A program made the position numbers and the translations under genes. Positions 5,877 to 10,715 of a stretch of DNA of 11,555 nt are shown in pieces (the first letter of the stretch is position 1; every line of letters begins with the position of its first letter). Origin of the DNA: Clostridiales bacterium. GTDB taxonomy: Bacteria > Bacillota > Clostridia > Lachnospirales > Anaerotignaceae. The stretch lies in NCBI GenBank assembly GCA_021202325.1, contig JAJQDF010000108.1, positions 1 to 11,555 of the forward strand. The letters are read 5' to 3'. A model generated the notes under the pieces. The model was given only the letters and a program-made list of their open reading frames with translations, had not been told where the DNA came from and searched no databases.

Positions 5877-5930
5877 TTTTATTCCTCCGAACAGCGGCTG
5901 ATTTTCAGCCTGAAAAAAATCTTTTTATAT

Positions 5931-5959
5931 ATAGTAACAGTTTTAAATTTTTTTATCAA
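5931..5959 (-). promoter_or_regulatory. sigma-A-type promoter of the folC operon
   Basis: On the minus strand TTGATA (5959-5954) and TACTAT (5936-5931) are separated by exactly 17 bp; each hexamer matches consensus at 5 of 6 positions, and the spacer is A/T-rich. The predicted start lies near 5924, about 48 nt before the folC TTG. The -35 box is only about 20 bp from the boundary of repeat element A, so the element lies just upstream of a functional-looking promoter. Positions 5877-5979 hold only this promoter and the leader. Confidence 0.75.
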
Positions 5960-5979
5960 CAGATTTACATAAAATTTAT

Positions 5980-6358
5980 TATGAAAGTCCCGGACTACAG
6001 CTAGACAGATGGGCAAGCTTGCTCGCACAGATGCCTGGACATTGGACGGGCTAACCGTATGGGTATCTACCATTTTTTCTTTTAAAAAATGGCACGAGGC
6101 GCTGAATGGTTCTGCATGCCGGCGGCATGCGTTAAGAACGGACCGAAGCGGAAGCGGAGAACCAGTGGACATTCGTTTAGCGCCAACCGGAGTGGCAACG
6201 TAGATCGAATACGGTCGATTGCGAGGTGCTGAACATCCGGTGGATGTTCGTTTAGCATCGACCGGAGCGGTGCTGCATACCAGTGGCATGCGTTTAGCAC
6301 GGACCGGAGCGGAAGCGTAGAAGCGTAGATTCGCAGAACGTAGCAATCGACTTTCATA
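5980..6358. repeat. structured palindromic repeat element, copy A
   Basis: A non-coding element sharing long stretches with copy B at 10330-10650, in the same orientation. It is bounded by the inverted repeat TATGAAAGTC (5980-5989) and GACTTTCATA (6349-6358). Shared parts, in order: a CTAGACA/TGCCTGG stem (6001-6038), ACGG/CCGT (6046-6058), an A/T stem CCATTTTTT/AAAAAATGG (6070-6092), a GGCGCTGAAT...ATTC-GTTT-AGCGCC stem (6098-6184) that here encloses a second hairpin (GTTCT/AGAAC with GCATGCC/GGCATGC, 6109-6139), a small hairpin near 6204-6216, and two more modules (6225-6259, 6270-6300). TCGATTGC (6215-6222) is complementary to GCAATCGA (6343-6350), which could close a branched domain. It fills most of the gap between the radical SAM gene and folC and is more GC-rich than the surrounding intergenic DNA. 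Long ORFs can be read through it, but they change character between the copies and have no ribosome binding site. Confidence 0.85.
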
Positions 6359-6388
6359 CCCAACGATTTCTGTGTAGCACACATTTTA

Positions 6389-7282
6389 TTAAAAAAGCGA
6401 CATTTGTTCGTATTCTCCGCCCTGCGGCTTACTTCTAGGCTCTCTGCGGCTTTTAGATATGCCGTATTTCTTCATAAGCTCATCGGTCATTTTATATAGG
6501 CCGGCTTTATACTCGGAGGAAACATATCCTCTCTTATACATCCCGCAAAGTTCATTATAGCAGGACGGATATTCCTCCCTGACAAATGAAAGAAAAACAT
6601 TTTTCGTCTCGCCCCTCAAATTCATAGGCTGAACAATGGCATAATCAACATCGGCATCCTTTGCATTTGAAAACAGAGATTCAAGGTTTTCCCTGCTGTC
6701 TGTTATAAATGGTATAACAGGCATTATATGCACTCCGGTGGAAGCCTTGGTTTTTGAAAAGGCCTTGAGCATTTCAAATCTTCTCTTTGAAGAAGCGCCC
6801 CTCGGTTCTATCTTTTGCCTTATGCTTTCGTCTGTACATGTTATTGTAGCGGCCACATTTACGCCGGCTGTTTCGGCAAGCTCCGCAATCAGGTCAAAAT
6901 CTCTGAGTATCAAATCTGACTTTGTGGATATGGTACATGGATTTTTGTATTTAATAAGAAGCTTAAGTATTTCCGGCATAAGCTTGTAGTGTTCCTCAGC
7001 AGGTTGATAATTGTCTGTTACGCCGCCCAAATTTATAGGCTCGCCCTTCCAGCTTTTAGAGTGCAGAAGCTTTTCCAGCTTTTCCGCAATATTTGTCTTG
7101 ACATAAATTTCATTAAAAAAGTTCTGCGAGTTCATATACTTATGGGTATACAGTGCAAAACAGTATTTACAGCCGTGTTCACAGCCCCGGTATATGTTGA
7201 GATCCCAAAGATATGGAAATCCGCCCTTAACCTTATTGCAGGCATTAACACATTCTATTTCTCTAAAATCATATTGCGCCAT
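6389..7282 (-). CDS. SPL-family radical SAM protein
   Basis: Encodes 297 residues. The radical SAM cluster motif is GCEHGCKYCFA, with Cys34, Cys38 and Cys41 (C-x3-C-x2-C) binding a [4Fe-4S] cluster that cleaves S-adenosylmethionine. The surrounding pattern (NIYRGCEHGCKYC, then GGVTDNYQPAEEHYKL, then ISTKSDLILRD, then IEPRGASSKRRFEMLK) matches the spore-photoproduct-lyase-like or Rv2578c-type group. Most of these have unknown substrates and are not true SPL enzymes, which carry a distinctive extra Cys. The start is set at ATG 7282, behind AGGTGG with a 5-nt spacer; the in-frame GTG at 7291 lies inside that Shine-Dalgarno. The protein ends in QMSLF. It appears to be a single-gene unit between the terminator at 7375-7421 and element A, with no terminator of its own other than whatever structure element A provides. 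Confidence 0.88.
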   Translation of the reverse strand: MAQYDFREIECVNACNKVKGGFPYLWDLNIYRGCEHGCKYCFALYTHKYMNSQNFFNEIYVKTNIAEKLEKLLHSKSWKGEPINLGGVTDNYQPAEEHYKLMPEILKLLIKYKNPCTISTKSDLILRDFDLIAELAETAGVNVAATITCTDESIRQKIEPRGASSKRRFEMLKAFSKTKASTGVHIMPVIPFITDSRENLESLFSNAKDADVDYAIVQPMNLRGETKNVFLSFVREEYPSCYNELCGMYKRGYVSSEYKAGLYKMTDELMKKYGISKSRREPRSKPQGGEYEQMSLF

Positions 7283-7439: not shown

Positions 7440-7868
7440 TTATAGCTTATCTATATTTTTTTCACCAAAAATCTCTATGCCGTTTTCCGCCAAAAGTTTT
7501 GATGTAATGCCGTTTCCGTCTATGAGCTTTTTCGTAAATGTTCCGTCATAGACCGCTCCGCAGCCGCAGGACGGGCTCTTTTCCTTCAGCACAGCTTTTT
7601 TACAGCCAAACATATCAACCAAACGCAGTGTTTCCTCAGCGCCCTTTTTGTACTCCTCGGTGACATCTCTGCCTTCGCTGTTTATTACCCTTTCGCCTGA
7701 TATTTCCGACGGAACTCTTGGCGTCGGCAGACCGCCCATTATTTCGGGACAGACCGGTATAATATTATATTTATACTTTAATGCTATTACATCTTCGTTG
7801 GGTTTACTCTTTCCGTCATAACGGCAGGAAACTCCCAATAGACAGGCGCTGACAATTATATTTTCCAT
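7440..7868 (-). CDS. DUF523 family protein, TudS-like (thiouracil desulfidase type)
   Basis: Encodes 142 residues with all hallmarks of DUF523 (YbbK-like): SACLLGVSCRYDG at 7-19, VCPEIMGGLPTPR at 39-51, and KEKSPSCGCG at 95-104. Cys9, Cys40 and Cys101 correspond to the three conserved cysteines that hold a [4Fe-4S] cluster in the characterised member TudS, which removes sulfur from 2-thiouracil. Cys15 and Cys103 are extra. Family members differ, so thiouracil activity is an inference; however, the position 2 bp after a Nudix gene and downstream of cdd, deoD and deoC fits a role in handling modified bases. ATG is at 7868. It is the last gene of the cluster and is followed by a good terminator. 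Cytoplasmic, with no signal peptide. Confidence 0.88.
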   Translation of the reverse strand: MENIIVSACLLGVSCRYDGKSKPNEDVIALKYKYNIIPVCPEIMGGLPTPRVPSEISGERVINSEGRDVTEEYKKGAEETLRLVDMFGCKKAVLKEKSPSCGCGAVYDGTFTKKLIDGNGITSKLLAENGIEIFGEKNIDKL

Positions 7869-7870
7869 GG

Positions 7871-8344
7871 CTATATCTCCAATTTATTGCCGTTCAATAC
7901 GGCCAATACAAGCTTATCTCCGATATACTCCAGCTTAAGCGAGAAAAACGGCGCATCAGAGGCAAGCAGTCCCAAAAATATTCTGTCGCCCTCCCACATG
8001 GGAAGCTTAAGCATATCATTTATATTTATCCACTCAAGGTCGCCCTCATCGCAGTCGGATATTATCTCTCCCTCAAAGCCGTCAACGGTAAACAAATGCA
8101 TATACTCTGTCTCCCATTCATCGGAAAGAAATGTAACTATGCCTCTGTACTTATATGAAGTAACCGTAAGGCCGGTTTCCTCCTTTATTTCACGGAAGGC
8201 ACAGTCCTCCGGACTTTCTCTGTCCTCAAACTTGCCGCCTATGCCCAGCCATTTATCATGGGACTGGTCGTTTTTCTTCTTGGTTCGGTGAAGCATAAGA
8301 CATTTATCGTCTTTTATGATATAGCACAATGTTGTATATCTCAT
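7871..8344 (-). CDS. Nudix hydrolase, MutT/8-oxo-dGTPase-like
   Basis: Encodes 157 residues with a perfect Nudix box, GKFEDRESPEDCAFREIKEE at 37-56 followed by TGL, fitting G-x5-E-x7-REUxEExGU. The Glu residues of REIKEE bind the divalent metal. Before the box comes TLCYIIKDDKCLMLHRTKK and then KWLGIGGK, the layout of 8-oxo-dGTP diphosphatases of the Firmicutes MutT group. Substrates cannot be read from sequence with certainty; nucleoside triphosphates with damaged bases are likely. Its ATG overlaps the cdd stop as ATGA (8341-8344), indicating translational coupling, and a GGGAG lies 7 nt upstream inside cdd. It is separated from the DUF523 start by only 2 bp. Confidence 0.92.
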   Translation of the reverse strand: MRYTTLCYIIKDDKCLMLHRTKKKNDQSHDKWLGIGGKFEDRESPEDCAFREIKEETGLTVTSYKYRGIVTFLSDEWETEYMHLFTVDGFEGEIISDCDEGDLEWININDMLKLPMWEGDRIFLGLLASDAPFFSLKLEYIGDKLVLAVLNGNKLEI

Positions 8345-10329: not shown

Positions 10330-10650
10330 TGAAAGTCCCTGACTGCGGCCAGACAGATAGGCAAGCTTGCTTGCATAGATGTCTGGACATTGGACGGGCT
10401 GACCGTATGAGTCACGTAGCCATTTTTTGCATAAAAATGAGCGGAGGCGCTGAATATCCGGTGGATATTCGTTTAGCGCCGACCGGAGCGGCAGCGTAGA
10501 CCGAATGCGGTCGATTGCGAGGTGCTGCATGCCAGTGGCATGCGTTTAGCACGGACCGAAGCGGTGCTGCATGCCAGTGGCATGCGCTTAGCACAGACCG
10601 GAGCGGCAGCGTAGAAGCGTAGATGCGCAGAACGTAGCAATCGACTTTCA
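10330..10650. repeat. structured palindromic repeat element, copy B
   Basis: Second copy of the element at 5980-6358, shorter by about 55 bp. Ends are TGAAAGTC (10330-10337) and GACTTTCA (10643-10650). Hairpins in order: CCAGACA/TGTCTGG (10349-10386), ACGG/CCGT (10394-10406), CATTTTT/AAAAATG (10421-10439), and GGCGCT+GAATATCC/GGATATTC+AGCGCC with GTTT bulged on the 3' side (10446-10480). Then GACCG/CGGTC (10499-10512), and two near-identical modules GTGCT+GCATGCC/GGCATGC+AGCAC 43 bp apart (10522-10552, 10564-10594). TCGATTGC (10511-10518) can pair with GCAATCGA (10637-10644). Modules are joined by variants of GACCGGAGCG. It lies in the 565-bp gap between divergent deoC and ppiB, clear of both promoters. 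No gene is supported inside it. Confidence 0.85.
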
Positions 10651-10686
10651 TACATCATGGGGCGCCGTTTTAGCGGTGCATATTAG

Positions 10687-10715
10687 TTTACTTTTCGGTT
10701 CAATTATGATAAAAT
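10687..10715 (+). promoter_or_regulatory. promoter of the cyclophilin gene
   Basis: TTTACT (10687-10692) and TAAAAT (10710-10715) are separated by 17 bp, and the -10 is preceded by TGA, giving an extended -10 (TGnTAAAAT). The predicted start near 10722 gives a leader of roughly 50 nt. It begins about 37 bp beyond the end of repeat element B. Confidence 0.65.

What the first reader, a model, noticed from the sequence alone, without database searches (positions are those of the whole stretch)
5980..6358. Two copies of an unrecognised hairpin-module element with compensatory stem changes (copy A)
Copies A and B keep the same module architecture (outer 5-6 bp stem, inner 7-8 bp stem, 3-nt loop, 4-nt bulge GTTT, GTTA or GCTT on the 3' side only), while stem sequences change on both sides. 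Outer stems seen: GCGCT/AGCGC, GTGCT/AGCAC, GTTCT/AGAAC, GTGCT/AGCAT. Inner stems seen: GAATATCC/GGATATTC, GAACATCC/GGATGTTC, GCATGCC/GGCATGC. The A/T stem also changes from 7 to 9 bp. Paired changes that keep base pairing point to selection on folded RNA or single-stranded DNA, or to a replication mechanism that needs the palindromes. I know of no named family with this layout.
Basis: partly seen in the sequence, partly recalled or inferred. Interest (0 to 1): 0.78.

Follow-up and report, generated by a model that had tools for sequence, protein, structure and literature searches.

The report
Tiny mobile hairpin in gut bacteria
The two repeats are expanded relatives of a known RNA-like repeat that carry copies of a roughly 53-letter DNA hairpin, which also sits in other places in many related bacterial genomes, including inside protein genes, and appears to jump by a route that is not yet known.

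Summary
In detail: copies A and B contain modules with a 5-bp outer stem, a 7- or 8-bp inner stem, a 3-nt loop and a 3' GTTT-type bulge, and stem changes are compensated. (1) A and B as wholes are diverged, expanded relatives of Rfam Clostridiales-1 (RF01699); their genome holds 32 RF01699 matches, 27 over the cut-off. Copy B scores below the cut-off; copy A was not matched directly. (2) The modules are a separate 51-54 nt repeat with no Rfam match of its own. It sits in Clostridiales-1 elements and in other modules, but also in unrelated repeats, partial tRNA repeats and protein genes; 36 of 295 sampled genomes of the order have it (own included). In a relaxase gene a 99%-identical relative gives a clean empty site: 54 nt inserted, no duplication, no loss, 18 residues added in frame. 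So it is a mobile element, closest in behaviour to Rickettsia palindromic elements but different in size and phylum. The enzyme is unknown: Y1 transposase and reverse transcriptase genes were each not found in 4 of 10 carriers tested. A folded single DNA strand as substrate is my preferred, unproven mechanism. A general hairpin-loop target preference was tested and not established.

The parts
5980..6358 (+). Copy A: expanded Clostridiales-1-like element, TATGAAAGTC...GACTTTCATA
   Evidence: first 119 nt 89% identical to G000:C201, a 74.2-bit RF01699 match; matching spacers in G003 and G001 (same genus) lack it
6099..6108 (+). Module A1, first part (interrupted by A2)
   Evidence: sequence; remainder at 6161-6204; not matched by model R1
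6109..6160 (+). Module A2, 52 nt, nested in the inner stem of A1
   Evidence: L001:1629-1682, 51.3 bits with one flanking base each side
6161..6204 (+). Module A1, second part
   Evidence: sequence
6226..6269 (+). Module A3, first part (tail interrupted by A4)
   Evidence: L001:1746-1788, 49.5 bits
6270..6321 (+). Module A4, 52 nt, nested in the small tail hairpin of A3
   Evidence: L001:1790-1843, 55.7 bits
6322..6329 (+). Tail of module A3 (AGCGTAGA) left after A4
   Evidence: sequence
10330..10652 (+). Copy B: expanded Clostridiales-1-like element
   Evidence: RF01699 match 10331-10649, model 1-166, 28.7 bits, cut-off 48, E 0.0052
10447..10500 (+). Module B1, 54 nt, within the second Clostridiales-1 stem region
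   Evidence: model R1 79.5 bits
10522..10563 (+). Module B2, first part (tail interrupted by B3)
   Evidence: L003:1692-1731, 35.2 bits
10564..10615 (+). Module B3, 52 nt, nested in the tail hairpin of B2
   Evidence: model R1 59.7 bits
10616..10623 (+). Tail of module B2 (AGCGTAGA) left after B3
   Evidence: sequence

Best explanation
Copies A and B are two expanded copies of a dispersed element related to Clostridiales-1 RNA. The hairpin modules inside them belong to a separate, non-coding mobile element of 51-54 nt: GYGCT stem, inner hairpin with AGT-type loop, GTTT bulge, then a small GC-GGA-GC hairpin and the tail GNAGA. SHOWN: the module occurs in many genomes of this order in unlike surroundings; it follows a sequence close to RSG; it lies in either orientation relative to genes; at least one insertion is exact, with no target duplication and no loss; stems are kept paired while their sequence changes; modules lie inside each other. 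INFERRED: it moves as a folded single DNA strand that is cut and joined by an enzyme supplied in trans, which reads the fold and the conserved unpaired bases rather than the stem sequence. It persists because it is short, open in several reading frames and often lands where a hairpin is tolerated. I put the mobile-element part at about 0.85 and the single-strand DNA step at about 0.4.
For: No Rfam family for the module in the window or 32 loci. Host varies: in an even sample of 18 loci none has RF01699 at its cut-off, in 7 others 1 does (L052), while 7 of 8 picked by eye as Clostridiales-1-like do match it, 6 over the cut-off. Clean empty site: L104 GCAGG[54 nt]CCCGC against L228 GCAGGCCCGC, 99% identical over the 501-nt query. 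Protein level: 8 aligned relaxases (query included) are 18 residues longer, in frame and at one place, than 8 others. Other filled/empty pairs: 71 of 174 modules have a hit across the joined flanks, 59 of them to DNA without module motifs at the junction. Covariation, including the tail hairpin that was not used to choose sequences. Site motif in 85 non-redundant, non-nested sites: -1 G in 83, -2 G/C in 73, -3 A/G in 79, +1 C in 56. G.U pairs are rare, 6 of 886 inner-stem pairs. Patchy spread: 36 of 295 genomes of the order, own included, and no match in the 3 other genomes of the genus.
Against: No enzyme identified; no experiment shows movement. Several filled/empty pairs show a net loss of 1-2 nt rather than a clean join (L123/L162, L090/L093, L109/L103, L135). 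Hairpin loops as targets are not established: with two filler bases 28 of 97 sites fall in predicted loops, against 13% of other positions in the same flanks but 22% with mismatched flanks (p 0.08), and 21 of 85 against 21% without nested sites (p 0.25); without filler 25 of 97 against 17% of other positions (p 0.03) and 10 of 97 mismatched (rank test p 0.12), and 18 of 85 against 18% without nested sites. Low G.U could come from palindrome correction without selection, and Clostridiales-1 itself shows 15 one-sided against 83 both-sided changes. In the own genome I saw no module clearly outside a Clostridiales-1 element or remnant. Some copies spread by riding on other repeats, so copy number overstates module jumps.
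Confidence: 0.75

Rival explanations
1. Everything is one structured non-coding RNA family: Clostridiales-1 RNAs that grew extra hairpins by internal duplication, the modules serving the RNA.
For: RF01699 is filed as an sRNA; copy B keeps its helices with two expansions; in the own genome the module-bearing loci that I read all lie in such elements or remnants; 7 of 8 hand-picked loci of other genomes do too; whole-element folds are more stable than shuffles, z -3.0 and -4.7.
Against: None of 18 evenly sampled loci of other genomes has RF01699 at its cut-off; modules lie in protein genes in both orientations, one with an exact empty site.
Confidence: 0.1
2. The module is a REP-type repeat moved by a Y1 HUH transposase (RAYT or IS200/IS605 kind).
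For: Hairpin, no target duplication, conserved bases upstream of the join, a GTAG/GGAG-like tail; Y1 genes or pieces occur in 6 of 10 carrier genomes tested.
Against: Y1 not found in 4 of 10 carriers (G000, G126, G270, G245) and found in 4 of 6 non-carriers. Only 1 of 20 loci around Y1 genes holds a module. The hairpin starts at the first base, leaving no room for an IS200-type left guide, and the GNAG motif is at the 3' end, whereas in REPs it tags the palindrome's 5' foot (both recalled).
Confidence: 0.2
3. The module spreads through an RNA copy: reverse splicing or reverse transcription by a group II intron or other reverse transcriptase.
For: Strong fold; exact insertion without duplication; several hosts are structured RNA-like repeats; L115 carries a group II intron.
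Against: RVT_1 not found in 4 of 10 carriers, and neither RVT_1 nor Y1 in G000 and G245. Both senses relative to genes. No Rfam intron match at the module.
Confidence: 0.12
4. The module is carried mostly by host recombination: short-homology repair at broken hairpins and gene conversion between repeats, with no dedicated enzyme.
For: G-rich 5' and C-rich 3' flanks fit the module's own ends; some sites lost 1-2 nt; no enzyme common to all carriers was found among the two families tested.
Against: The relaxase site is exact and shares no more than single bases with the module ends; the end positions are the same in unrelated sites.
Confidence: 0.25

Closest known systems
Rickettsia palindromic elements (RPE) and Wolbachia counterparts
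   Same: Short palindromic repeats, fused in frame in protein genes and also present in RNA genes; no experimental proof of a mover in the 2007 review (passages of PMC2229807, PMC3767692, PMC10969869).
   Different: RPE are 105-146 bp with terminal inverted repeats, in Rickettsia; this is 51-54 nt, begins with its hairpin, nests in its own tail, and was found in a Clostridia-related order. Sequences were not compared letter by letter.
GTAG and CGTC REP families
   Same: Small palindromes with short loops and compensated stems; some inside genes (passages of PMC3733652).
   Different: REPs are 20-40 bp and that paper lists Proteobacteria, Cyanobacteria, Chloroflexi, PVC, Chlorobi, Bacteroidetes, Spirochaetes and Thermotogae; 'Firmicutes', 'Clostridi' and 'Lachnospir' do not occur in its main text. 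GTAG REPs often lie by RAYT genes; here no such link.
Clostridiales-1 RNA, Rfam RF01699
   Same: Host element of the window's modules: closing stem, GCTTGC-loop stem, ATGAG..CGAAT stem, GATTGCG..CAATC stem.
   Different: The copy B match carries two insertions of 90 and 110 nt and falls below the cut-off. Of its original report I saw one table row (PMC2864571).
Bacterial MITEs such as RUP, and the 8-bp-duplication repeat seen in L066
   Same: Non-autonomous, many copies; modules ride on some of them.
   Different: Most carry terminal inverted repeats and duplicate the target; the module does neither at the clean site.

Membership tests
Clostridiales-1 RNA (RF01699) | score at or above the curated 48-bit cut-off | tested here: not met
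   copy B 28.7 bits; copy A no match up to E 1
Clostridiales-1 RNA (RF01699) | consensus stems in order over the whole model | tested here: met
   copy B aligned to model 1-166 with two long insertions; copy A not alignable by the scan
Clostridiales-1 RNA (RF01699) | sequence kinship with copies over the cut-off | tested here: met
   copy A 89% over 119 nt to C201 (74.2 bits), 86% and 83% over about 100 nt to C15 and C206
Rickettsia palindromic elements | in-frame presence in protein genes | tested here: met
   relaxases with and without an 18-residue block; 7 frames open through a module carry Pfam domains, without empty allele except the relaxase
Rickettsia palindromic elements | length 105-146 bp | tested here: not met
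   51-54 nt in 167 of 179 model matches
Rickettsia palindromic elements | sequence kinship or occurrence in Rickettsiales | not tested
   no rickettsial sequence was fetched or searched on purpose
REP / RAYT | cognate Y1 transposase gene flanked by the repeat | tested here: not met
   1 of 20 Y1 loci has a module nearby; Y1 not found in 4 of 10 carriers
REP / RAYT | palindrome tagged by GTAG or CGTC | tested here: inconclusive
   tail GNAGA includes GTAG or GGAG in many copies, but at the 3' end after a second small hairpin
MITE | target site duplication | tested here: not met
   none at the 99%-identical empty site
MITE | terminal inverted repeats shared with an insertion sequence | tested here: inconclusive
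   module ends are not inverted repeats of each other; no insertion sequence library was searched

The most novel reading that the evidence does not exclude
A self-contained mobile unit of only about 53 nt, recognised by fold rather than by stem sequence and joined exactly into a single DNA strand by a protein not yet known to move elements, has spread through this gut-bacterial order, where it decorates RNA-like repeats and adds about 18 residues to proteins.
Probability: 0.3. Interest if true: 0.85.

Novelty: new variant of a known kind. Interest (0 to 1): 0.64.

Why it matters
In-frame palindromic inserts are best known from Rickettsia, where they are unusually frequent, although other small repeats also fuse in frame (passages); the 2007 review found no experimental support for a mover of such elements (passage). 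Here is a comparable system in anaerobes, some of them isolates, with near-identical filled and empty alleles, so the mechanism can be attacked directly. It also warns that Rfam-type families in these genomes can be expanded by parasites, and that small insertions in their proteins may be former hairpins.

Tried and rejected
Known Rfam family for the module: none in the window or in 32 loci (L061 was scanned twice). Y1 transposase as mover. Reverse transcriptase as mover. Hairpin-loop targeting as a general rule: flank pairing was above permutation (3.67 against 3.23, 0 of 300), but the folding tests do not separate it clearly from the G-rich/C-rich flank bias, so I dropped the claim. My first reading that modules of other genomes lie almost wholly outside Clostridiales-1 was too strong: 7 of 8 loci picked by eye match it. 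tRNA insertion: the modules at L040 and L127 lie near, not in, the tRNA gene that ARAGORN finds; L098 is unclear. Plasmid collection: no match for one 54-nt module; phage collection: one unannotated record; viral contigs: 2. Empty allele for the L128 relaxase: nothing found, not even a control, which shows nothing. Replication-strand bias: not tested. The PDB alignment of the GT8 protein did not reach the insert; the relaxase had no PDB relative up to E 1. Paper searches listed no description of such an element in this group; only open-licence papers are held, and I saw listings, abstracts' first lines and, for five papers, passages.

Dropped rows: one search used 130 of 148 parsed modules, 85 after collapsing similar flanks; A2 and A3 left out copies with short or odd tails (60 of 64 and 42 of 46); one search used 168 of 179 model matches, 97 after collapsing, 85 without nested sites; one search had 174 queries; the swap test used 118 of 121 hits; one search listed many frames open through modules, several of them plainly not genes, and only 7 went to Pfam. 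Model R1 surveys scored at most 14, 19 or 150 candidates per genome, so copy and carrier counts are lower bounds. The local BLAST printed nothing; the empty site was read from the strings printed there.

Full report
What is in the window. Copy A (5980-6358) and copy B (10330-10652) are two full copies, 75% identical. Both hold TGAAAGTC at the start and GACTTTCATA at the end. An Rfam scan of the window gives one relevant match: copy B to RF01699, Clostridiales-1, model 1-166, 28.7 bits, E 0.0052, below the 48-bit cut-off; copy A gives none up to E 1. The family has 32 matches in the genome of the window, 27 over the cut-off, and the first 119 nt of copy A are 89% identical to one of those, C201, 74.2 bits. 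An alignment of 18 Clostridiales-1 copies from this and related genomes folds into three stem regions; 21 of 26 predicted pairs show a both-sided change. So A and B are expanded relatives of that family, not orphans. Copy A is absent from the matching spacer in two genomes of the same genus (G003, G001), where the two flanking regions lie 133 and 231 nt apart; no RF01699 match is found there. Among 40 genomes, own included, 4 have RF01699 matches, none of them one of the 3 others of the genus.

The modules are something else. Each has the form G-Y-GCT stem, inner hairpin of 7 or 8 bp (commonly G...CC-AGT-GG...C), 3' bulge GTTT or GCTT, closing stem, then GACCG-R-AGC-GGA-GCG-N-AGA with a few variants. 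In the window they are nested: A2 splits the inner stem of A1; A4 and B3 sit in the small tail hairpin of A3 and B2, leaving two AGCGTAGA tails in a row. Their surroundings differ (read by eye): dispersed repeats of several kinds, a terminator-like hairpin (L051), partial tRNA repeats (L040, L127; the tRNA gene found by ARAGORN lies beside), a gene that reads like a tyrosine recombinase (L039, recalled), relaxase genes (L104, L128).

How often the host is Clostridiales-1. An even sample of 18 loci shows no RF01699 match at its cut-off; 7 others, chosen earlier for contrast, show 1 (L052, E 0.1); 8 picked by eye because they looked like Clostridiales-1 show 7, 6 over the cut-off (L061 does not match). 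So it is one common host among several. In the window's own genome every module-bearing locus that I read lies in a Clostridiales-1 element or remnant: 15 loci parsed (window copies included) and L009, L023, L186 and L187 (partly by eye; L015 and L027 only as remnants). One is a head-to-tail array (L186).

Structure under selection. On 60 copies with the 8-bp stem, 99.7% of cells pair and 73 cells changed on both sides, against 17.7 in shuffles; on 42 copies with the 7-bp stem, 98.7% and 64 against 13.9; no shuffle of 500 reached either, and slid partners fall to 12-48% paired. Because those copies had been filtered for pairing, I repeated the test on all pattern hits without that filter: 114 of 121 form at least 90% of the pairs, 7 do not, 2 more were cut off. 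The tail hairpin, never used for selection, also covaries: C-G to U-A in 4 of 60, G-C to A-U in 3 of 42. G.U pairs make up 6 of 886 inner-stem pairs. That fits a DNA hairpin, but palindrome correction would do the same.

Mobility. Empty sites were sought by joining flanks in scripts: 46 of 117 modules had a hit across the junction; with model R1 matches 71 of 174 did, 59 of them to DNA without module motifs at the junction (a motif check, not a proof). Pairs from unlike hosts include L211/L178 (no length change), L123/L162 (one nt fewer), L090/L093 and L109/L103 (two fewer). The best case is a relaxase gene: L104 has GCAGG[54 nt]CCCGC where L228, 99% identical over the 501-nt query beside it, has GCAGGCCCGC. 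The join is exact: no duplication, no loss. The gene runs antisense to the module and stays open. Frames also stay open through modules in a GT8 glycosyltransferase whose Pfam match (12-298) spans the insert, a second relaxase, an RNA methyltransferase just after its domain, a BcrAD-type ATPase between two domains, a radical-SAM protein before its domain and a metallo-hydrolase after its domain; for those I have no empty allele, and since modules are open in several frames an open frame alone is weak. In L039 the host frame, as I read it by eye, meets a stop in the module.

Target. In 85 non-redundant sites outside other modules the base before the module is G in 83, preceded by G/C in 73 and A/G in 79; the base after is C in 56. 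Whether sites are hairpin loops was tested twice. With two filler bases: 28 of 97 against 13% of other positions and 22% with mismatched flanks (p 0.08); 21 of 85 against 21% mismatched without nested sites (p 0.25). Without filler: 25 of 97 against 17% of other positions (p 0.03) and 10 of 97 mismatched (rank test p 0.12); 18 of 85 against 18% without nested sites. So loop targeting as a rule is not shown; single loop insertions are clear (L109/L103).

Spread. Model R1 finds 32 copies in the own genome, 106 in G042, 36 in G046, 25 in [Eubacterium] cellulosolvens G041, and 3-5 in four others (at most 150 candidates scored each). In the order 36 of 295 genomes, in a phylum sample 5 of 398, own included in both; one of the 5 (G570) is told only as same phylum, so outside the class. 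Viral contigs 2, plasmids 0, phage records 1.

Mover. Y1 transposase (PF01797) was found in 6 of 10 carriers and 4 of 6 non-carriers; RVT_1 in 6 of 10 and 3 of 6; G000 (83% complete) and G245 (99%) show neither. Modules are not gathered at Y1 genes: 1 of 20 loci. Old copies could outlive a lost enzyme, so this lowers but does not exclude either. My preferred mechanism, a folded single DNA strand joined exactly by an enzyme in trans, rests on the exact join, the conserved unpaired bases with free stem sequence, low G.U and both orientations; it is inference.

Compared with what is known. It works like Rickettsia palindromic elements (short palindromes, in frame in proteins, also in RNA genes; passages) but differs in size, ends and lineage; I do not file it as one. 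It differs from GTAG/CGTC REPs in size, tag position and lack of a Y1 link (passages). I found no print description in the searches named in Tried and rejected.

Noticed in passing
L002, L012, L013, L023 against L001, L003, L005 (own genome): Clostridiales-1 copies of one genome carry two different 5' domains (GTGTTTTCAATAG...TATTAGAAAAC or CCGGACTGCGGCCAGAC...) joined to a similar 3' part, as if swapped.
   Followed up: no
window 10653-10700; L014, L016, L018, L024, L030: Beyond the Rfam end several copies share a further G+C-rich hairpin followed by ATGTAAGTTTA-like sequence, so the element may be longer than RF01699.
   Followed up: no
L066, about 6180-6420 and 7710-7950; similar in L120, L147: A repeat with ends GTAACTGTTCAGTAC...GTACTGAACAGTTAC carrying two modules is flanked in L066 by apparent 8-bp direct repeats (GAATAAAG; GAGCTTGA): a MITE that moves modules along.
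   Followed up: partly
G270:C1 2527535-2822269 (L200-L205): 9 of the 10 modules reported in this 2.9-Mb contig lie within 0.3 Mb; the five read (L200-L204) sit in another dispersed repeat (CCACGCCGAAGGCG...).
   Followed up: partly
L186 450-746 (G000:C113): Head-to-tail array of at least four module units inside a Clostridiales-1-like element.
   Followed up: no
window 5879-6382, strand -: A 167-aa frame runs open through copy A, as modules are open in several frames; I do not take it for a gene.
   Followed up: no
L045, L069, L071, L072, L110: A larger repeat with a TGCCGCCG motif before the module seems to lie inside or near protein genes and to carry a module itself.
   Followed up: no
L119 5731-5820: Match to skipping-rope RNA (RF02924, 55.2 bits, over its cut-off) in the same locus as a module; not related to it as far as seen.
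   Followed up: no
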